NCBI GenBank assembly: GCA_949825025.1
Contig: OX463780.1
Location: forward strand, 27,246,118 to 27,310,117
Length of the DNA stretch: 64,000 nucleotides
Source of the DNA: Siphlonurus alternatus
Lineage: Eukaryota > Arthropoda > Insecta > Ephemeroptera > Siphlonuridae
Direction of reading: 5' to 3'
The notes under the pieces were generated by a model. The model made no database searches and had not been told where the DNA came from. It saw only the letters and a list, made by a program, of their open reading frames with translations. The first letter of the stretch is position 1; the number at the start of each line of letters is the position of its first letter. Below, one piece after another: positions 8,501 through 43,455 of the stretch. Both the position numbers and the translations under genes were made by a program.

Positions 8501-11500
8501 AAAATCCTTACATATTTCTCCAGTGAACAATTTACCTATATACACAAATCTCGAATATCTCGAGCTATCGAAGGTATAATTCTGCTATTTTTTCCCCCTC
8601 CTCCATATATGCTGGTATACTTCCAAGTCCAGGAAGTATTTTTAAATTAATTTAATGCAATTAAGTGCGGCCAAACTATTTGTTGATTGGCTTTTAAAAA
8701 TCAAGAATTCATAATTATAATTTATGCAACAATATGACACAAAATTTAAAATTTAAGCAATTATAGTTAATATGCGCGCAAAACATCTCGGCACAATGAG
8801 AGACCTACTTATTTCTTCACGTGGTATCAAAATATATTTGTCTGCATATATGATACAACAAAACTAGCTAAAAACCACTGCTTCCATTAAATTTTACAAT
8901 TAAGAAATATGGTGCAAAACACACGGTATCCAGCATCCAGCTACATGCAATCCTAAAAACAGACTATCATGCGCGCGCACTTTACTTTCAACATGTAATT
9001 AAAGCATTGAAAAAAGAGTTTCTGAAGAAATGAAAATCGCTGCTGACAATCTATAATATCTCGCCGCGCTCTTAATCGCAAACCAAAAATAATAATAATA
9101 AAATTCTTGTACTTACCGGGATGTCCATGGACTGCAATGAGCTCGAATGAGGCGAACTTACCTAATTGTCAAAATTTAAAGGTCGTGCACATCAAAAACA
9201 CATTTCCTTGCAAAATCAATACATATAAGCCCTAACTTTAACTCTTAAACAGTTTATTTGAACATTTGGTAGGTGGCAGCACCTGAGAGCTTAACTACAA
9301 TATTTTCACTGCTCCGTAATTTTTAAAGATTAACCTTTTTGTCTATCATTTAATTAAAAAGAAAGTCTGTTCATCGGAAAGTTGAAGTTTTTTTCTATTA
9401 AGTGATACATTACTACTAAGTGTCCTGTGCATTGAACTTTAAATATAAAGGTGTGATAAATATTATCTTGAGAACAACATCATGACGGACCTACGCTCCA
9501 TGCGTGCTACACCTCAGTTCTGCTCTCCGCTCGTACCACACTGGCCGCCACCTGCTAGAACTACACCGGAGGTTTTTAACTCACAATTTATTAATTATGA
9601 TAAAAATAATTCTGATATACATATGTCCAATGAAAGCCTATCAAATGATCTGACTGTACATCCAATGTACAAATTAATTCAACATAATATTAAGGACTTA
9701 TTTACTGACTTTAGAGAAGAAATTAAATGCACTATTAAATTAATGTTAAATGAAAGAAATGGAATTTCTTCTGCAAATAACTTTAATAATGAGGGAAATT
9801 CAAATCATCAATGTCATATACAAACAGCTGATTATGACAGGTCACCAGTTCAATTCTCGCGACCTTGGAGGACGGCTGGTTACACAAAACAACGCCCACC
9901 TCAGCCGACGTCGTTCACTAGAGTGCCACAGCAGCAGCAGCAATCACGCCAGCAGCAGCAGCAACAATCTGAGCAATCACGCCAGCAGCAGACACGCCGG
10001 CAGCACGTTGTAAGTCAGTATCAACCTCGTCGCCCGCTCCAACACCAACCGAGCGCTCAGCGACCGCACCCTACCCAGCTGCCGCGCCAAAGCCAGGGTG
10101 CCCAATTGCGCCCCCCAAGACCTCCTTATAATCCGTGGGGTGCGACAGTACCAACATCAAACTCATTTTCAGTACTACAACATATTAATAATGAGTCTTT
10201 TCCGACTTTACATCAGAAAAATACCAATAACAATAATATAAAAAGAAAACATCAAAATTTCCGTTTCATTGAAAAGAAAGGAAATTTGTTTGACGCACCA
10301 CCAGGCACATCCTACGCCCACTGCGTTGATAAAACATTTAAACAAGGACGTGGAGTTGCAACTCAATTTAAAAAAAAACATGGACAAACCCCTTTTTTAA
10401 AGAGTCAACTCAAAAATACTGGTGAAGTAGCTGTTTTACCTTCAGATGACAGTTTTATTTTCTACTTAGTTACTAAATCTGTCCATAACAGCTATCCTGA
10501 CCACTCAAGTATACTACTTGCATTAAAAAATTTAAGAAATATCTGTGAGATTTTAAGTATAAAAAAACTCGCAATTCCTCGTTTAGCATGTGGCAGAGAC
10601 GGTTTCAACTGGTCTACTATAAAACAAGACATTATTTCAGTGTTCAAAGATCTTGACATTGAAATTGTTGCTTATTATGGATGGAAGACATTAGCAAAGA
10701 AAGTTGCAAGTAATGATGATGAAACAGCTGTTAAAGAACTCTTTGAGGAATCAGCCCAATCTACTCTAGCAAACGTCATTACCGCTAGGGCCCCTCCTTC
10801 TAATAACCTGGCGGTCCTTGTAAGTTCCGGGCAATGCCAGACCTCTACCTTGCGAGAGAGTACCCGCCCCTCAATTGTCACGCCTGACATAGTGAGGGTG
10901 GAGGGACTGCCAGTGCCAGCCACGAAGGAGCAGATGTCTAATACCCGGGGCGAGAAGTCAGGCCTCGCTCAGGTGAACGACGGTACCACCCCGGGCGAGG
11001 AGTCAGGCCTCGCTTCGGTGAACGACGGTACCACCCCGGGCGAGGAGTCAGGCCTCGCTTCGGTGAACGACGGTACCACCCCGGGCGAGGAGTCAGGCCT
11101 CGCTTCGGTGAACGACGGTACCACCCCGGGCGAGGAGTCAGGCCTCGCTTCGGTGAACGACGGTACCACCCCGGGCGAGGAGTCAGGCCTTGCTCCGGTG
11201 AACGACGGTACCACCCCGGGCGAGGAGTCAGGCCTCGCTTCGGTGAACGACGGTACCACCCCGGGCGAGGAGTCAGGCCTCGTTTCGGTGAACGACGGTA
11301 CCACCCCGGGCGAGGAGTCAGGCCTCGCTCCGGCAAACGACGGTATTGCCCCGAGTGAGGAGTCAAGTCTTGTTTTGGTAAACAATAGTTTGCCTGAATC
11401 AGGACCACCCTTACCAGATCCTGTATGTTCTCTTGAGTTGAATCAAGATATTATAGATCTGAACTCATTACATCCAAGACTCAAAGCTTTTTTACTAACG

Positions 11501-14500
11501 ATTTTAGATAATAAATTCCAATTTACAAATGATCTATTAAAAAATGATGAAACTGCTGCTAAGAAAAGTGCAATTAATTCAGAAAAATCAATTAATGAAA
11601 TTTCATCTGTTGTCTCACCATCCATTATTAGTAAAAATGATACTATTAATGATAATGTTTTGAGTTCAAATGTTGATAATTTTAATCTGGCATCTCAATT
11701 GAAATCCCCCATTAAAAATTCTCAGGAAGATACACAATCTTCCCCTGTGAGATCACGGCTCCGTGCCAGTACACTAAACAGTATCTCCACCAAATTGCCC
11801 AACAAAAAAAAAACTTAATGTTCAGGTTCACTCAGCCCCATGTAATATTAAAATTCTTCAGCTTAACTTACCAGGCCTAAAAAATAAATTACCAAAATTT
11901 GAGTATTTTCTTGAAATGGTTGATTGTGATATAATTATATTATGTGAACATGGGCTGAATGAATCTGAAATTATAACAATAAATTTTAAAAATTTTATGA
12001 TAGTTTCATATTACTGTAGAGATATTCAAAAATGTGGGGGAGTAGTAATTCTATCTCGTAAAGGTTCAAATATAAATGATATTAAAATAAAATCCATTGA
12101 ATCAGTTTTTGAATGCTGCATAGCGAAATTAGTAATTAACAAGACAACAAACATTTATTTTGCTTCTATATATCGCCCACCTAATATATCTAGAGTGATG
12201 AAAAAAATTCAGAATTTTGACAACACAGAAAATAATATAAAACCATTCTTAAAAGAGTTTGAAATGTTATGCAAAAAATTAATTAAATACTGTAAAAATA
12301 ATGATGATTTTTTTATTATTGCGGGTGACGTAAATCTTAATTTATTTATTGATGATGCAAATGTAATTTTATATAAAGATATACTGGACTCATACAAGTT
12401 GGAAATTGTTAATAGTTCCGCTACTAGAGAAACAATGAAAACGGCTACTTTAATTGATCATATTATTAAAAGTACATCTGCTATTAATACTAATTATAAA
12501 ACTGAAAAAACAACTCTGTCGGACCATAACTATACTATAGTCACAATAACATTAAATAACTCGAAGAACATTGATAAAATACAAGAAAAACAATTTTATT
12601 ATAAACGAATATTTGACAAATGCAATTTAGATAATTTTCTGCTCCTATTAATTCGTGAAGAATGGAATGATTTATTAAATCCTGATCTCAATTCAAATGA
12701 GAGATGGTCAAAATTTCTTGAAATTTTTATTTATCATTTCAACGAGGCTTTTCCTGTTGTTAAAAGAAAAATTTCAAGTAACAAAAATAAACCTTCCTGG
12801 ATACTCAATAACCCCCATCTTTACGAACAAGGGATTTCTTTAAAACGCTTACACTATGATGTAAAATTTACTGACCCAAATTTAGAGTCTACTTATAAAA
12901 AAGAAATGAAATCTTATAAACAAAATATGGCCACCGCTAAATTTAAAGAGAATGACCATGAAATAAAAGGAGCTAATAATAAAATTAAAGCTACGTGGAA
13001 TATAATTAATAAAGAATGCAAAACAAAGAAAACAAATGTTAATAATAAGAATAAATATGAATTATGTATAAATAGTGTAACGATTACAGACCCCAAACTA
13101 ATTTGCAATTTATTTAATAATTTTTTTGTCAAGACAATTGAAAATATAATAACAGAAAAATTTCCTTTTAATTATTCTAATACTTTAATTTTTGTCGATT
13201 CTGATAAAAGTAAAACGAAATTAAATTTTAGTTCGATAGACCCGATTTATATTTTAAATCGAATGAAATCCCTTCCTAATAAGTATGCAGCTGGCCCAGA
13301 CGAAATACCATATACTGTTGTAAAATATTGTGCTTCTGTTTTGTCTGTCCCTTTATCTAATTTAATTAACCATTCAATATCAGATGGTATATTTCCTGAT
13401 TGTTTAAAGGATTCTAAGATTTATGCAACTCATAAAAAAGGCCCAACTTTCAATATTGATAATTACAGACCAATATCAAATACATCTGTTTTTGGCAAAT
13501 TATTTGAGAATACATTAGACGATCAAATTACGGATTATCAAACAGAAAATCATTTAATTGCTCCCTGTCAACATGGATTCTTGAAAGACCGTTCTACTGA
13601 TACAGCACTATTTGATCTTTTAAGCCACGTTTATATGGCAATAGATAATAAACTATTTTGCGTTGCAATATTTTTTGATTTATCTAAAGCGTTTGATAGT
13701 CTAAATAAAGATGTCTTATTGAATAAATTTGATAACATGGGAATAGGAGTTTCGAGTCGTAATCTATTAGATTCATATCTAACAAACAGAGAACAATATG
13801 TTGAATTAAATTCAAATTCTAACGGCTATTACATATAAATCAGACAAATTACCGATTACACTTGGAATTCCTCAAGGAGGAAAAATGTCAGCCACATTGT
13901 TTAATACAGGAACAAATGACTTATCAGATCATGTCAAGAATGCGGTATTAGTAAAGTATGCTGATGATATTACAGCTATAATCACAGCAGAAGCCGAAGA
14001 TGAATTAATTCGTAAGATTAAACTTACTATTGAAGAGGTACATACATGGTGTACAAATAATAAGCTAATATTAAATTCAACTAAAACCGAATACATCCAA
14101 TTTCATTCCCCTAGACAAATCCCTTTGAATAGTTATTTGTTGCAATTAGCCGGAAAAACAATTAAAAGAGCAGAGTCTGTTAAGTTTCTTGGTCTACACA
14201 TTAATGAAAGTTTGGATTGGTCTTTACATGTAAATGCGATTTGTAAGAAGATAAATTCGGCCAATTTTATGTTATATACAATCAGGAATCATGTATCTCA
14301 TGAAACCTTGCTAACCATATATTATGCGTATGTTTATCCACATTTGGCATATGGCATAATAAATTGGGGATGTAAATCGGAACTATTGAATCGATGTTTT
14401 GTTTTGCAAAAGAGAGCACTTAGAACGATTTTAAGAATACCAAAAGGACAGTCGTGTGTTTCACATTTTAAGGCTAATAAAATGTTAACTGTCCCTTGCA

Positions 14501-14957
14501 TTTATATTTTAAATTGTGCCTCATTCAAAAAAAATCATCCAAATTTTTATGTTCAGAATGATGGCTATCATGACTATAATACTAGGAATAAATCGAATGT
14601 AGTTACTGAAAGACATAACACACAATTTTTCAAAAACTGTGCAATGTATCAAACAGCAAAATTTTATGAATTTTTACCAGCATGTTTGAAAGAAATAAAA
14701 ACCAGTAAACTTTTTCGCACAAAATTAAAGAATGTATTGATCAATAAAGAGTTTTACTCTATTAAAGCTTTTGAGAGTAATAAAATGTCTGAAAAAGTAT
14801 TATCAGGATTATAAAATAAACAAAATTATAAATTTACATATACATTGTATTGACTGATATATATATATATATATATGTATATGTGTGTGTATATGTATGT
14901 GTATATGTATGTATGTATATATATATATATATGTATATGTATGTATATGTGTATATG

Positions 14958-15046
<89 letters not shown>

Positions 15047-18000
15047 ATATATATGTATGTATATATATATATGTATATATATATGTTCCGCATAAACTAA
15101 AATTTATCAGTATTAATGGTGACTTTGGCTTGTATTTTGTTTTTATTATTATTGTCAGTGATTGTGTTTGATAGTGTTAAATAACTTATGTAAATGTGTT
15201 TAAGTTTGATGTTTTTATGTTGTATTTTGTCCAATTTTGACTTGAACATATGTTTGTCTTGTACAACCAAAAAGAAGTTCCAAAATAAAAATAAATAAAT
15301 AAATAAATTACATAGTAATTTGCTTATTTGTCCATTTTTCACGCATAAATGTCCTACTGGTTCTGTCCTACAAAATACAAAATCACTAAAATTCACAAAG
15401 CAAAATAATCACATGTCACTTTGGCGCGTTCGTGCAATTAATTTTCAATCTGCTGGCTAGAGGTGTCAGCACTTTCTGGCTATTAGTGGACATGATACAA
15501 CGATTAGTAGATGTGTTCTCGATGTGTTTTCAAAACCCAAAACTAATTAAACTAATTTTAAAGTTGTTTTCTTGATGATTTCCAGTCATGTCTGCAGGAT
15601 ATTGTCATGTGGCATAAATGGCATAATATATGTGGAATTGCTGCAATGTCTGCAATTTATTGGTCAAATTTCTGGTCAATGGTCATCATAAGGCAATGCT
15701 GCAGAGATGAATGGAAGTCGTCAAGAAAACTACTTTAAAATTAGTGCGCCTTTTTGGGTTTTAAAAACGCATCGAAACGCATCCTGATAGCCAGAAAGTG
15801 CTGCCACCTCTAGCCAGCAGATTGAAAATTAATTGCGCCAAAGGGACATGTGTTTATTTTGCTCTGTGAATTTTAGTGATTTTGTAGGACATTCATGCTT
15901 GAAAAATGGACAAAATAAAAGCAAATTGATATGTTAAATTCAAATAAACGATTTAAGAGTTAAAGTTAGGGCTTATATTATTTATTTTGCAAGAAAATGT
16001 GTTTTTAATGTGCGCATGCAACCCGGCCCCGGCCAACAGCCGGCTTAATTTTTTTTGACAATTAGGTGCATACCGGTCGGCGGCAGGCGCGGATCCAGGG
16101 GGTGGGCTGGGGGGGCTGCAGCCCTACCCCCCCGAAATTTTGGATTTAAAATGGGCAATATAGGCATTTCCCCCACTCCAATTTTTTTTTTTTAACATTG
16201 ACCTTATGGAGGCAGCCCCTCCCGAAATTTTTTTCTGGATCCGCGCCTGGTCGGCGGTATGCATAATATATAATTATACGTGTGCCCCGGCCTGCCTGCA
16301 TGCTGTATACGTTTTTATAAATTGTTCTCCTATCTCCGAACTAAAGTGACCAGCAAGCTTAGTGTTCAGTGCAATAAAAAGCTTAAGGTAAGTCCGCCTC
16401 GTGTGCAGTCCATGGACATCCCGGTAAGTACAGGTATTTTATTATTTTTGGTTTGAGGAGAGCACGGCAAGATAGCTAGATCGTCAACAGTGATTTAACC
16501 GATTTTCATTTCTTGAGAATTAAGCTCTTTTTTGAGCATGATGCATGCATGGTTGAATCACCAGTTGAATGCACAGTGTGTATTATACGAATTATACCTA
16601 TATTATATATACATGTGTCTCTGTTTTTAGGATTATAAATTAAATTCATGGGTGAATACCGTGTTTTGCGCGCGCGTCGTTATATTATATTCTTGCTAAA
16701 TTTAATGAAAGCAGTGGTTTAATTTGTATCAAACAAATATTTTGATACGTCATGAATATGCTTTAATGCAGTAAATTTAGCAGTATACTGCAATGCTTTA
16801 GAAAAATAAATTAAGGAATTGAAATTAAGGAGAGATCGAGTTCTATACTTCTTTCGTTTTTCAAAAAACATAAGAAATTTATCACTAGACTTGATTAATT
16901 AAGATTTTAATACTTGGTATTATAATATAGTAAATATTAACGGGATGTCTTTGAGCTGCAGCTAATATTAAAATTTAATTGAAGCTATTTAGTGTAATAG
17001 TAATTTGTGAAAAATTTAGTGAAATTTAGTAAAAATTCTAGTGAAAACCTAAAAAAAAAAAAAAAAAATCGCGACTGCGGCGGGTTACTGGGGGGATGTC
17101 TTTGAACTGCAGCTAATATTAAAATTTAATTGAAGCTATTTAGTGTAATTTGTGAAAAATTTAGTGAAATTTAGTAAAAATTCTAGTGAAAACCTAAAAA
17201 AAAAAAATCGCGACTGCGGTGGGCTACTGGGGGGATGTCTTTGAACTGCAGCTAATATTAAAATTTAATTGAAGCTATTTAGTGTAATTTGTGAAAAATT
17301 TAGTGAAATTTAGTAAAAATTCTAGTGAAAACCTAAAAAAAATCGCGACTGCGGCGGGTTACTGGGGGGTTCCCCCCCCCCCCAGACCCCCCTTTGGAGT
17401 GTTGACCCCCGCCTATGTGAGCCGTCATTCCTTCTCGCTCGATGGGCCGTTTTGGCCCAGTCCGTGCCTGCGCCGGACATAACACTCCTAAAGTCGTGCA
17501 GCATATTGATGTAATCTATATAATGTATATTATATGTATAGCTTATTATTTTGCACACGATCGTGGAAGACAGATCGCTCATTATTCAGAACAAGGGACG
17601 GTTATATGCAGAGACAATGGCAGTAATCTAAAAAAAATTATACAGACATTTTACATGCACACATATACACCTTTTCCTTTGCTGGCATGTAACAAAAATA
17701 TTAAATATTTACACTATGACGGTCCAGTGTTTTTTAGCACGATTATAATGGTATTAAAATATTTAATATTTAGAGGGTTAAAATAAAGCTAAAAAATGTT
17801 AGGTCTGTTCGTAAATACACAATCAGAAAGAATCAATTATTTGTGATGAATCTTCTGTTCCATGTACAGAAGGTTTATCACAAATAATCGATTCTTTCTG
17901 ATTGTGTATTTTTACGAACAGACCTATTATATTGACAAATACAGAACTTGTGAGGTTCTTAATATGCATATTAAAAATTGTCATGCAGGTTGTCCTTTTT

Positions 18001-39718: not shown

Positions 39719-41008
39719 TTAGACACCTGTCGCTGACAAGTTCAGACCACCGTTGTGTCTCAATAGCGAGGGCTGTACTCCGGTCTCTGGTTTCATTCCA
39801 TGGTGGCCGTTAGAGCTGGGCTGAATGGCTACACTACAGGCCCTCGAGGAAGAACTGGAAGCCGCGAGACACATGGAAGCGTTGCGACCAATCAGAGGCG
39901 AGGGCAATGGTTCCTTCTTACAAAGACAAGGACATAGACGTAGTGGGCTGGTGAGTCCCCTCGAGCACACACGCAGACGACGGAACATGGCGCGGCGGAA
40001 ACTGCGGGACATGGTGACGTAGAGCACCGGGTTGAGCGCAGAGTTGAGGTACATCACGAGGAAGGTTGCGGGGGTGAAGAGCTTGCTGTAGAACGACATG
40101 GTGGGCGGGGCGAGGCTGGGCTGACTGCGGAGGCGCGCCTGCCACATCTTGCGGGCGTGGTACGGCAGGTTGCACAGCAGGAACGACAGCACCACCAACA
40201 TCAGCATCAACACCACGCGGCGACGGGCCGCGAGGGGACCAGGAACGTTTTCTACACGTCTTGGAGGAGCTAAAGTAGCAGGTACTGCTTCTATACGTCG
40301 TCTTCTCTGTAAATCCTCTGGAGTTGGAGGTGGTTGTGGTGAGGCAGGCGGAGCAATGGAAGTATTTGAATTTCGTCGCTCTCGGCATAATTTACACCAC
40401 GATCTCTTTCGCTTGCGAGGTCTTGGAGAGTTGGAAGGACGAAGAGGATCTCTGGACACTCTACACGGTGGTAAAGACTTAAGACGCCGTAATGGCTGTA
40501 ATGGAGGAGAGTAGTTTGGTACTGGGCTAGGACTTCTGACTCCCACATTTGAACGGAGACTTCGAGTATCGGCACCACAGCTGGCGCAAGTCTGCAACGT
40601 CGATTGAGCTTCATAGCCGTGCTCTGAGGGAAGTGCCAGTAAACTTGTAGTAGTCGTGTTTCCAGGAGGAGAATCGTCAATAGTATTAGCAGTAGCAGTA
40701 GTATTTGCGTTAGGTCCCGAGCTGAGAGTGCGTCCTGCGTGTACGTTCCCCGCGGGTACTCGCATGCCGCTCCTCCACAGCTCGACGCACATGCGGGAGT
40801 ACATGGCGAACATGGCGAACAAAGGTAGCGCATACAGAAGAACAAGGTTGGCCATGTCAAATGCGTCAGGGTCGTAGCGTCGCGTGTCGAGGTGACAGAA
40901 GGTGTCGTGCTCAGTGGAGTGTCGCAGGGGCTGGCTGGTGACGCGAGCGAAGAAGAGACGTGGGGCCGCGTATGCCGCGCTCACCACCCACACCACCACC
41001 ACGATCAG
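39719..41008 (-). CDS. TrissinR: Trissin receptor terminal exon, helices 4-7 and C-tail
   Basis: The acceptor TGTGTCAACAG precedes L-I-V-V-V-V-W (helix 4). The exon encodes 429 residues to a TAA at 39721-39719. The open frame continues a few codons upstream to a Met, but the splice site and family alignment place the exon edge at 41008. Other open frames over this GC-rich exon are shadows. Confidence 0.87.
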   Translation of the reverse strand: MIVVVVWVVSAAYAAPRLFFARVTSQPLRHSTEHDTFCHLDTRRYDPDAFDMANLVLLYALPLFAMFAMYSRMCVELWRSGMRVPAGNVHAGRTLSSGPNANTTATANTIDDSPPGNTTTTSLLALPSEHGYEAQSTLQTCASCGADTRSLRSNVGVRSPSPVPNYSPPLQPLRRLKSLPPCRVSRDPLRPSNSPRPRKRKRSWCKLCRERRNSNTSIAPPASPQPPPTPEDLQRRRRIEAVPATLAPPRRVENVPGPLAARRRVVLMLMLVVLSFLLCNLPYHARKMWQARLRSQPSLAPPTMSFYSKLFTPATFLVMYLNSALNPVLYVTMSRSFRRAMFRRLRVCSRGLTSPLRLCPCLCKKEPLPSPLIGRNASMCLAASSSSSRACSVAIQPSSNGHHGMKPETGVQPSLLRHNGGLNLSATGV

Positions 41009-43455
41009 CTGTTGACACAAAACAAGGACTAGTACCACTAGTAAATGATATAACTCTGCATCACACTATAACCATACGTTATACATACAGCGCACAGTGA
41101 ATACAGTTTATTGACAGCTAGGTGTGTATTCAAATTGAATATTAATGTATATAAATTAAATTTATTTCATTTCATTCATTTAAAAGCTCTAGGCTATTAA
41201 ATTAGAATCCTGTATGTTATATATAAAAAAATGAAAATAACATGTTCAGTAATAAAGTGTGATTAATAAAATATATTTTCAATGTACCGTGTCAATTTCC
41301 ATAGCAGGAATACAATTTCCCTATTTTCCTTAATTTAATTTATTTTGTCATTAAAATATACAGTCCTCTACATTACATTCGAATAAAAATGTTCTATCCC
41401 GCCATGTTAATGTATAGCCGCATCGGATATTTTATTCGAATGTGAAGTGTACAGCATAATTATATATATGTATGTAGTAGACTAAGTATATAAATGATTT
41501 AATCGTTAAATATTGAAATTACTAGAGTGGGTGTCAATTTAAATAATTCACAATTTTACATTCTATCAAATCGATACGAATTTTCAATATACACATAACA
41601 TAGAAATTTTATATAAGAACCTTCATTACATATTCTTTGAGAGTGATATTACCATAAATGAACCAAGTAACAATCCTTATAATCACCATTAACTATTTAT
41701 AATATAAATATTTAACAAATGAAAAATCTACAGTTTATTGTAAGGTTCGGTTCCTCCATCATGACCCTCTTATAATTTGACTCTATGTTTCTTTTAACTG
41801 AATGATATAAATAAATAAATTTAGTAAAAGGAAGTATTTTATGACAATCTTGAATGTTTATTTTCTTTGTTTTACTGTTGCTATTTTTATTTTTGGTGAC
41901 AATGACGAGGGTTTTCGAGGTTACACTCCCTTGTTTTGAGAACTTGATATAAAAAACAAATACATGAAATGTGACACAAATTCGTCCCCTTGGAATTTTT
42001 TCTGGTTACACATCGTTTTAAAAATTGAAGCAGTTGGGATATATTCTCACCCTCAGTCTGGCGGTGGTAAGGACACTGCGCGTGTGGAAGGGCTGCATGA
42101 TGGCGACGTAGCGCTCCACGCACACGGCCACCATGATGAGCACCGAGGCCACGTAGCTGAGAGCCTGCACGTACAGGTACATCTGGCACATGAATAGTCC
42201 CAGAAGCCAGCTGTAAAAAGTATCATTTTTACTCATTGTCAATCTGATATATAGAAATTAATTTTTTTACTTTGATCATAAATTTATGGGTAAGATAACG
42301 CGAAACATCGATTGTTGTAGTCCCATTTGATTAATATGTAAACCTTAGAAACCTCATAATAATTCTGATTTTTTTTGAAGACAGTTCTTAGCACCAAAAA
42401 AATGTGGAAAAAATTTCAAAACAATCGGACGATCCAATTTTTTTTTAAATTAATTGATTAGTTTAGATCTCCATGGTAAAGCCCTATACTGAAAATTTAA
42501 ATAATTAATTTAAAAAATTGGATCGTCCGATTGTTTTGAAATTTTTTCCACATTTTTTTGGTGCAAAGAACTGTCTCTAAAAAAAATTCAGAATTATTAT
42601 GAGGTTGCTAAGGTTTACATGTTAATCAAATGGGACTACAACAATCGATGTTTCGTGTTATCTTACCCTTAATTTAATACAAAAATAATCATTATAAGCA
42701 TGGTTATTTGGATGTATATAAATCTAAATAACATTCCATGATGTAAACAAATAATTTGAGGTGTGACTTGAAATATAAGGTGTGTTCGTATAAAAACCCT
42801 GCTCGGAACACATATAGAGTAATGCACCAGGCTGCACCAGCTATGCAGTGGTAGGGAGCTAGTGCAGTCCATAGTTCAGTGAGTGCAGTGCAAATGACGT
42901 TACAATTTTTGTTCGTTGTGTCTCCGAGTAATCCGAGTAGGGTCAACAGGCCTATAATAAGATTACGTCAGTCTTTTTGTTGAGCTGAATGTCAGTGCAA
43001 TTTGCTTGGTTTAAATCGAGTCTTAATTTATATGCTGCTTTTTAATATACTTACTTTTTTGTAAGTACATTTCATTATATTTAGCTCGAGCATTAATGAA
43101 TGTCAATTCTCCGAAGAGTGTCCCCATAATTAATTTTAATAATTTTAAGATAAATACTTGAAATCGTGGAAAAGAATAAAAGTTTTTTTCGTAATCCAAT
43201 ATTAAATTTATATGGAACGATGTTAATAAAAATGTAATGAAAACTAGAATTATATAGCTTTCAATTATGTATGTAGCATGTTTTTGTTAAAAAGACATTC
43301 TGTATTCGCTTACTTGCTGAGGTACGCCATGAAGCTCTGCATGACGCAGAACACTCCGACGCAGAGGTCCGCGAGTGCCAGCTGACCCAGCAGGAAGTTC
43401 GTCTTAGACTCCACCTGGCGGTCGCACTGCACAACTAGGATGACCAGGAAGTTTC
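39719..43455 (-). CDS. TrissinR: Trissin-type neuropeptide receptor (class A GPCR), 3' three exons
   Basis: Minus-strand exons 43455-43314, 42210-42051 and 41008-39719 join in phases 2 and 0, giving about 530 residues. They cover helix 2 (L-A-L-A-D motif), helix 3 ending E-R-Y-V-A-I (DRY variant), helix 4, an extracellular loop with C-H-L-D, helix 5, a loop of about 190 residues rich in Pro, Arg and Thr, helix 6 with L-C-N-L-P-Y-H-A-R-K-M-W, helix 7 with N-P-V-L-Y, and a Cys-rich tail. The helix 6 string and A-D-x-C-V-G-x-F-C-V-M-Q match the insect trissin receptor as I remember it. The protein would bind the Cys-rich peptide trissin at the cell surface and signal through a G protein. The exon(s) for the N-terminus and helix 1 were not found above 43456 and may lie outside the window. 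Confidence 0.85.
42051..42210 (-). CDS. TrissinR: Trissin receptor exon, helix 3 and second intracellular loop
   Basis: The acceptor TTTTTACAG and donor GTGAGA bound a 160-bp exon. It contains the conserved helix 3 Cys (F-M-C-Q) and E-R-Y-V-A-I, ending T-T-A-R-L-R in phase 0. Confidence 0.85.
42288..42667. mobile_element. Palindromic MITE in receptor intron
   Basis: Ends GGGTAAGATAACGCGAAACA / TGTTTCGTGTTATCTTACCC. The arms pair over about 150 bp, including AATTGGATCGTCCGATTG at the inner edges. Confidence 0.87.
43314..43455 (-). CDS. TrissinR: Trissin receptor exon, helix 1 end to helix 2
   Basis: The acceptor GTGTTTCAG opens in phase 1, so the preceding exon should end in the G of the helix 1 Gly-Asn pair. 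The exon is 142 bp and the donor is GTAAGC. Confidence 0.82.

What the first reader, a model, noticed from the sequence alone, without database searches (positions are those of the whole stretch)
9482..11818. Retrotransposon ORF1 that carries a TARG1/OARD1-type macro domain
ORF1 of this LINE contains a full-length macro domain with the TARG1 order of motifs and both catalytic residues (Lys332 and Asp373, matching Lys84 and Asp125 of TARG1). Macro domains remove or read ADP-ribose, a mark used in DNA repair and antiviral defence. A mobile element that carries one could be countering host PARP responses or acting at nicked target DNA. ORF1 proteins are known with zinc knuckles, RRMs, esterases and PHD fingers; I know of no described macro-domain ORF1. 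The role is inference, the motif match is direct.
Basis: partly seen in the sequence, partly recalled or inferred. Interest (0 to 1): 0.9.

Follow-up and report, generated by a model that had tools for sequence, protein, structure and literature searches.

The report
LINE retrotransposon carrying TARG1-type macro domain
A family of jumping genes in this animal genome carries, in its first protein, an enzyme-like domain that in other organisms removes the ADP-ribose mark used in DNA repair and antiviral defence; selection has kept the domain across related families, so it probably helps the element move or escape its host.

The parts
9270..15309 (+). whole LINE (non-LTR retrotransposon), about 6.04 kb, from shared 5' base to the TAAA-type 3' tail
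   Evidence: 26 of 30 fetched copies start at the same TAGGTGGCAGC, their 200-nt flanks at least 60% mismatched; the mirrored arm of the host inverted repeat aligns across the insertion point without the LINE; tail 15277-15309
9482..11818 (+). ORF1, 778 codons, intact
   Evidence: 30 of 30 fetched copies uninterrupted
9662..9757 (+). predicted N-terminal long helix (residues 61-92), possible oligomerisation helix
   Evidence: full-length AlphaFold2 model of low confidence, mean pLDDT 33; alignment of 4 lineages
9842..10255 (+). basic, Q/R/P-rich low-complexity stretch (residues 121-258): 19 K+R against 2 D+E, no Cys
10256..10687 (+). TARG1/OARD1-type macro domain (residues 259-402)
   Evidence: most conserved part of ORF1 among lineages, apart from the shared repeat of the window family and L043
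10475..10477 (+). Lys332 codon, aligned with TARG1 catalytic Lys84
   Evidence: role of Lys84 from passages of PMC7050489 and PMC8501950
10598..10600 (+). Asp373 codon, aligned with TARG1 residue 125 (Asp in the PDB sequence)
10943..11365 (+). in-frame 45-nt tandem repeat, 9.4 copies (15-residue unit), acidic
   Evidence: 9 units matched by pattern in the window copy, 4 in L041, 8 in L043, 0 in L042
11450..11575 (+). conserved C-terminal segment, predicted helical in part (residues 657-698)
11778..13838 (+). ORF2 first open stretch: endonuclease motifs and start of reverse transcriptase; +1 frame relative to ORF1, opens before the ORF1 stop
   Evidence: RVT_1 E 1.9e-11
13810..14814 (+). ORF2 second open stretch: rest of reverse transcriptase (with YADD) and C-terminus, in another frame, so ORF2 is broken in this copy; 4 of 4 other window-family copies read here have one open 1013-codon frame
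14857..15084 (+). AT-rich microsatellite in the 3' untranslated part
9187..9262 (+). left arm of the inverted-repeat element that the LINE entered
   Evidence: 70 of 76 positions match the reverse complement of 15939-16013
15939..16013 (-). matching right arm, without a LINE (empty-site reference)

Best explanation
This is a recently mobile, two-ORF LINE whose ORF1 protein has a TARG1-type macro domain, and none of the RNA-recognition, zinc-knuckle, PHD or esterase domains known from other LINE ORF1s. SHOWN: the anatomy, the fold match, both dyad residues, many near-identical copies, presence in divergent LINE lineages, and purifying selection on the domain. INFERRED, likely (about 0.75): the domain is a working ADP-ribosylhydrolase. 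INFERRED, my preferred mechanism (about 0.45): ORF1p coats the element RNA through its basic low-complexity stretch and carries the hydrolase with the particle. There it strips ADP-ribose that host mono-ADP-ribosyltransferases of the PARP12/14/ZAP type put on ORF1p, ORF2p or the RNA, so the particle escapes sequestration or decay, much as viral macro domains are thought to counter host ADP-ribosylation.
For: TARG1 match by sequence and fold. Lys in 15 of 16 and Asp in 14 of 16 LINE-type rows (some rows are close kin). Copies: 58 of 58 scored ORF1 matches cover the domain, 57 of 58 without a stop. A search with the macro domain of another LINE lineage gave 150 of 150 scored matches at E<=3.6e-26, 148 of 150 without a stop inside; 150 of 312 candidates were scored and 3 rows are the two host loci. 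Selection: domain 67-78% identical among four lineages against 38-55% for residues 1-140; pN/pS 0.18-0.26 in the three pairs with DNA, synonymous sites near saturation; dN/dS 0.09 at dS 0.48 for L053/L058. Between the window family and L042 the domain (77% aa) is better kept than the endonuclease (46%) or reverse transcriptase (45-54%). Host: 22 PARP-domain matches; the two compared with the PDB are closest to PARP12, then PARP14/15 and ZAP. TARG1-type domains also lie in LTR-retroelement-like proteins of an aphid and a beetle. Viral precedent: passages of PMC7050489 and abstract start of PMC7232374.
Against: No activity, expression or interaction data. TARG1 Asp20 is Asn in the window and 7 other LINE-type rows, and Ser35 is not kept in any of the 16 (that these residues matter is recalled). 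L053 and L058 have Lys for Gly123. Two LINE-type rows lack one or both dyad residues (L051, P0008), so hydrolysis is not universal. Against L043 the domain (70% aa) is no better kept than reverse transcriptase (70%) or the ORF2 C-terminus (76%, pN/pS 0.17). A PARP-rich host is not an arms race; no other genome was compared, and several PARP matches may be exons of one gene. The review read here in passages reports that PARP1/PARP2 help human LINE-1 (PMC8535693), which argues against a simple anti-PARP story at the nick. The full-length model is poor (pLDDT 33).
Confidence: 0.45

Rival explanations
1. The hydrolase acts at the integration site: it removes ADP-ribose from nicked target DNA, cDNA ends or repair proteins during target-primed reverse transcription, so that PARP1/2 signalling there is reset and the second strand can be completed.
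For: TARG1 removes ADP-ribose from nucleic-acid ends and thymidine (passages of PMC7050489 and PMC8501950). PARP1/PARP2 act at human LINE-1 integration sites (PMC8535693 passages). The element has an endonuclease/reverse-transcriptase ORF2.
Against: ORF1 proteins are mainly thought of as RNA-packaging proteins (recalled); no nuclear signal was tested. PARP1/2 help human LINE-1, so removing their mark need not help.
Confidence: 0.25
2. The domain is an ADP-ribose reader, not an eraser: it tethers the particle to PARylated chromatin or damage sites, as PHD fingers are supposed to tether other ORF1s.
For: L051 and P0008 keep the domain but lack dyad residues; ALC1-class macro domains include readers (PMC7050489 passage); the PHD tethering idea is in PMC4120745 (passage).
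Against: Lys is kept in 15 of 16 and Asp in 14 of 16 LINE-type rows, although domains can be as little as 47% identical (window against L053).
Confidence: 0.15
3. The fold is kept as a nucleic-acid or oligomer scaffold for ORF1p and has nothing to do with ADP-ribose.
For: No RRM, zinc-knuckle, PHD or esterase match in this ORF1 (Pfam E<=0.1), so some RNA-binding part must replace them.
Against: The dyad is kept, and the basic low-complexity stretch is a simpler RNA-binding candidate.
Confidence: 0.1
4. Chance capture or assembly artefact: one LINE copy that picked up a host TARG1 exon.
For: The host has a separate TARG1-like gene (L049).
Against: 58 scored dispersed matches, divergent lineages, selection.
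Confidence: 0.01

Closest known systems
TARG1/OARD1 (C6orf130), ALC1-like macro-domain hydrolase
   Same: fold, best match by sequence and structure, Lys84/Asp125 equivalents
   Different: at most 36% identical; built into a retrotransposon ORF1 with long low-complexity flanks, not a small stand-alone protein; Asp20 is Asn in the window
LINE ORF1 types I-V (Khazina and Weichenrieder scheme, as used in Metcalfe and Casane 2014, PMC4120745, passages seen)
   Same: first of two ORFs, in front of an endonuclease/reverse-transcriptase ORF2
   Different: the domain is a macro domain; that paper's main text has 'macro' 0 times; no RRM, CCHC, PHD or esterase found here. It would fall in the catch-all type V
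Jockey-like LINEs with a viral-type RNA helicase in ORF1, Hemiptera and Orthoptera (PMC5563155, passages)
   Same: insect LINEs whose ORF1 gained a domain of a known enzyme class
   Different: helicase, not macro domain; 'macro' 0 times in that main text
Macro-domain reading frames in fish epsilon-like endogenous retroviruses (PMC4977317 passage citing Basta 2009)
   Same: a macro domain carried by a retroelement
   Different: LTR retroviruses of fish with an additional ORF; class of macro domain not compared here
Alphavirus-type viral macro domains
   Same: parasitic genetic element with a macro fold; matched by Foldseek from E 1.4e-6
   Different: other subclass (treated under MacroD in PMC7050489, passages); 12-17% identity in the alphavirus rows

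Membership tests
TARG1/ALC1-like macro-domain hydrolases | sequence similarity to TARG1 over the whole domain | tested here: met
   residues 257-398, E 1.5e-24
TARG1/ALC1-like macro-domain hydrolases | macro fold, closest to TARG1 | tested here: met
TARG1/ALC1-like macro-domain hydrolases | catalytic Lys84 / residue-125 acid dyad | tested here: met
   K332 and D373
TARG1/ALC1-like macro-domain hydrolases | hydrolysis of ADP-ribose esters | not testable with these tools
   needs an enzyme assay
LINE (APE-type non-LTR retrotransposon) | reverse transcriptase in ORF2 | tested here: met
   RVT_1 E 1.9e-11 and 1.2e-9 in the two window pieces, 5.9e-31 in L044; R2 retrotransposon proteins in PDB E 4e-5
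LINE (APE-type non-LTR retrotransposon) | apurinic-type endonuclease in ORF2 | tested here: inconclusive
   window family: recalled APE motifs but Pfam Exo_endo_phos only E 0.035 in L044, under its cut-off. Related lineages L042, L051, L052, L054 pass the cut-off of an endonuclease family; L043, L050, L053 match below it
LINE (APE-type non-LTR retrotransposon) | dispersed copies with common ends, 3' simple-repeat tail, no LTR | tested here: met
   26 of 30 same 5' start in unrelated flanks; tails in 4 of 4 copies read there (window, L044-L046); no long direct repeat at the ends in the window
LINE (APE-type non-LTR retrotransposon) | target-site duplications | tested here: inconclusive
   flanks of 4 copies read by eye; only short, ambiguous matches
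Known LINE ORF1 types I-IV | RRM, CCHC, PHD or esterase domain | tested here: not met
   only Macro at E<=0.1 in Pfam (also L043 and P0001)
Jockey/CR1/L2 clade membership | reverse-transcriptase phylogeny with reference elements | not tested
   no named reference LINE set at hand

The most novel reading that the evidence does not exclude
Insect retroelements have, perhaps more than once, taken up TARG1-type ADP-ribosylhydrolases (LINE ORF1s in many families, LTR-type polyproteins in an aphid and a beetle) as a built-in counter-defence against a large set of PARP12/14-like host enzymes. This would reveal ADP-ribosylation as a layer of transposon control in animals, with LINE ORF1 as its antagonist.
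Probability: 0.35. Interest if true: 0.93.

Novelty: new variant of a known kind. Interest (0 to 1): 0.86.

Why it matters
ORF1 is the less understood of the two LINE proteins (so the abstract of PMC4120745). A conserved, catalytic-looking domain of a well-studied enzyme class gives a direct handle on what an ORF1 does beyond RNA packaging. It also makes testable whether ADP-ribosylation restricts or assists retrotransposition: human work (PARP1/2, ZAP; PMC8535693 passages) points to such links, but no LINE-encoded ADP-ribose enzyme turned up in the paper searches. Genome annotators should also know that some 'TARG1/macro' frames in insects are retroelement ORF1s.

Tried and rejected
Rejected: one-off capture; host gene only (the host has separate TARG1-like loci L049 and L057); MacroD-type domain (closest is TARG1; MacroD-like exons, so named by eye, lie elsewhere in L047 and L048).

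Led nowhere: scans of GTDB genome contigs (29 pattern matches, none confirmed) and viral contigs (101, none). Protein search with the macro domain alone: 18 candidates, none at E<=0.001. Full-length structure prediction was poor. The gene tree cannot say whether LINE macro domains arose once: with 14 rows they are one side of a branch with support 58/78; with 21 rows they need 4 changes, one origin not ruled out. Long branches: L051, P0006, P0008. Left out of the trees: L050 (frame interrupted), L059 (near-copy of L054), the first domain of L057, P0009 and P0010 (partial). A search for LINE relatives WITHOUT the domain, with the L054 endonuclease, did not complete, so when the domain was gained is unknown. 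A search with the L051 domain did not complete either. LINE clade not assigned. Paper PMC5434184 appeared in listings only, unread.

Results against my reading: two LINE-type rows lack dyad residues; L055 has a broken ORF2; P0002, P0003, P0005, P0007 and P0008 are called LINE-type from ORF1-like make-up by eye, no ORF2 seen; P0004 and P0006 are public gene models whose joins I could not check, the macro part of P0006 has no Pfam Macro match, that of P0004 is under the cut-off, and the rve_3 and CCCH matches are weak. L001-L030 are the best-scoring matches to the window, so their near-identity is a biased sample.

Full report

THE ELEMENT. ORF2 follows in the +1 frame with RVT_1 and, by motifs that I recall, an APE-type endonuclease; Pfam sees that endonuclease only weakly in this family (E 0.035 in L044) but above cut-off in L042, L051, L052 and L054. 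In the window copy ORF2 is broken by a frame change; all 4 other window-family copies that I read downstream (L041, L044, L045, L046) have one open frame of 1013 codons, and lineage L043 one of 1019; L042 has one stop. The 3' end is a TAAA-type tail. The LINE sits in one arm of an inverted-repeat element; the other arm aligns across the insertion point without it.

COPIES. The own genome (455.7 Mb, unnamed) gave 58 scored matches out of 1292 first-look candidates. 55 of 58 cover all 778 residues and 57 of 58 lack stops; counts are lower bounds. In the 30 fetched copies ORF1 is uninterrupted in 30 of 30; pairs differ on average at 5.9 of 2334 bases, and 14 of 30 are identical. These are the top-scoring matches, so the sample favours young copies. 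26 of 30 share the exact 5' start; of the other four, L012 starts slightly inside it, L010 and L029 differ there, and L006 reads N. Among the 26, the two most alike 200-nt flanks mismatch at 60% of positions, so these are separate insertions. The family has been mobile recently.

OTHER LINEAGES. P0001, from a public assembly, is the one hit of the first protein search, 69% identical over the query region. Searching with it showed divergent frames in the own genome, among them L042 and L043. Pfam Macro gave 25 matches in the genome, 22 of them in frames of 476-755 codons, one of these 22 being the host tandem locus L057. Six of these loci were fetched with room downstream (L050-L055). Five have an endonuclease-type ORF2 frame behind the macro frame (L050's macro frame has a stop); L055 has ORF2 pieces with endonuclease motifs in several frames, so a broken one. 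L056, L058 and L059 were fetched only around the domain. A search with the L053 domain gave 150 matches, all that were scored out of 312 candidates; 148 of 150 have no stop inside; three rows are the two host loci. Not every row was shown to be a LINE.

SELECTION. Among four lineages (window, L042, L043, P0001) the domain is 67-78% identical, residues 1-140 only 38-55%. pN/pS in the domain is 0.18-0.26 in the three pairs with DNA, synonymous change near saturation. For the closer pair L053/L058, dN/dS is 0.09 at dS 0.48; for the L052/L055/L056 pairs 0.03-0.07 at dS 1.4-3.1. Reverse transcriptase and endonuclease in the same comparisons give pN/pS 0.24-0.60, the ORF2 C-terminus 0.17-0.40. Between the window family and L042 the macro domain is the best-kept part (77% against 41-55% for ORF2 parts); against L043 it is on a par with reverse transcriptase (70% each). 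The domain is thus a working part of these elements.

DYAD. Among 16 LINE-type rows Lys is kept in 15 and Asp in 14; L051 has Asn for Asp, P0008 lacks both. Both host loci, human TARG1 and the two LTR-type rows keep both. Position 20 (Asp in TARG1) is Asn in 8 of the 16, the window included.

HOST SIDE. A stand-alone TARG1-like frame (L049, 182 codons; 131 bits to TARG1), a frame with two tandem domains (L057) and MacroD-like exons (L047, L048) are separate from the LINEs. PARP catalytic domains: 22 matches, all 26 candidates scored, six within about 50 kb on contig C8; some may be exons of one gene. I fetched five; the two compared with the PDB are closest to PARP12, then PARP14/15 and ZAP. 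No other genome was compared, so a PARP expansion is an impression from recalled insect gene counts.

OTHER SPECIES. A profile search (7996 candidates scored) gave 10 proteins: P0001, a mayfly (Ephemera danica), two aphids (Uroleucon formosanum, Melanaphis sacchari), a beetle (Callosobruchus maculatus, two rows) and four JGI rows. P0004 (aphid) looks by eye like an RNase H end, macro domain, integrase. P0006 (beetle) has an integrase C-terminus (Pfam E 9e-14), then the macro domain, then a weak CCCH match. Both keep the dyad. Whether the LINE domains arose once or several times is not resolved.

LITERATURE. Passages seen, no paper read whole: Metcalfe and Casane 2014 (PMC4120745; ORF1 types; 'macro' 0 times); PMC5563155 (helicase ORF1s); PMC4245714 (TARG1 patchy in invertebrates); PMC7050489; PMC4977317 (fish retroviruses with macro-domain ORFs); PMC8535693 (PARP1/2 and ZAP in LINE-1); PMC8501950 (TARG1 on DNA). 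Searches for macro-domain retrotransposons listed no paper that I could recognise as describing a macro-domain LINE ORF1. Lists were capped (25 of 61; 25 of 314; 'macro domain' 0 times in all 25; 15 of 37). The library holds open-licence papers only; Repbase was not searchable.

MECHANISM. Shown: anatomy, copies, selection. Inferred: the domain hydrolyses ADP-ribose (dyad, fold). Preferred: it travels with ORF1p on the element RNA and undoes marking by PARP12/14-like enzymes. Main rival: it acts on ADP-ribose at the integration nick. Others: reader, scaffold.

VERDICT. A real, conserved and, as far as I could search, undescribed type of LINE ORF1: a new variant of a known kind of element, with a function that is easy to test.

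Noticed in passing
window 11778-11853; L042, L043, L044: ORF2 opens before the ORF1 stop in the +1 frame in the three lineages read, with no Met codon between the start of the open frame and the first endonuclease motif in 3 of 3, suggesting frameshifting or non-AUG initiation.
   Followed up: partly
window 10943-11365; L043: The 45-nt tandem repeat is nearly the same in the window family and L043 (82% aa in that stretch) although the other parts of ORF1 outside the macro domain are 30-54% alike, hinting at exchange between LINE lineages.
   Followed up: partly
P0004 (Uroleucon formosanum), P0006 (Callosobruchus maculatus): TARG1-type macro domains inside LTR-retroelement-like proteins, next to integrase parts.
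   Followed up: partly
G000:C8 about 24.92-24.97 Mb; L060, L063: Six PARP catalytic-domain matches within about 50 kb in open frames; the one compared with the PDB (L060) is closest to PARP12.
   Followed up: partly
L057 (G000:C3:10610986-10611836): Open frame with two tandem TARG1-like domains followed by SQY-type repeats, probably a host gene.
   Followed up: no
L051, start of its 755-codon frame: This macro-ORF1 has a Cys/His-rich N-terminus and a macro domain with Asn for the Asp of the dyad: a possible non-hydrolysing variant.
   Followed up: no
P0010 (Callosobruchus maculatus): A gene model that joins part of a TARG1-like domain to a Rubis-subs-bind domain; real fusion or annotation error not checked.
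   Followed up: no
window 39719-41038 (-): Frame with a rhodopsin-type 7TM receptor match (Pfam 7tm_1, E 3.4e-19).
   Followed up: no
window 17057-17334: Two tandem copies of a 139-bp unit, 99% alike.
   Followed up: no
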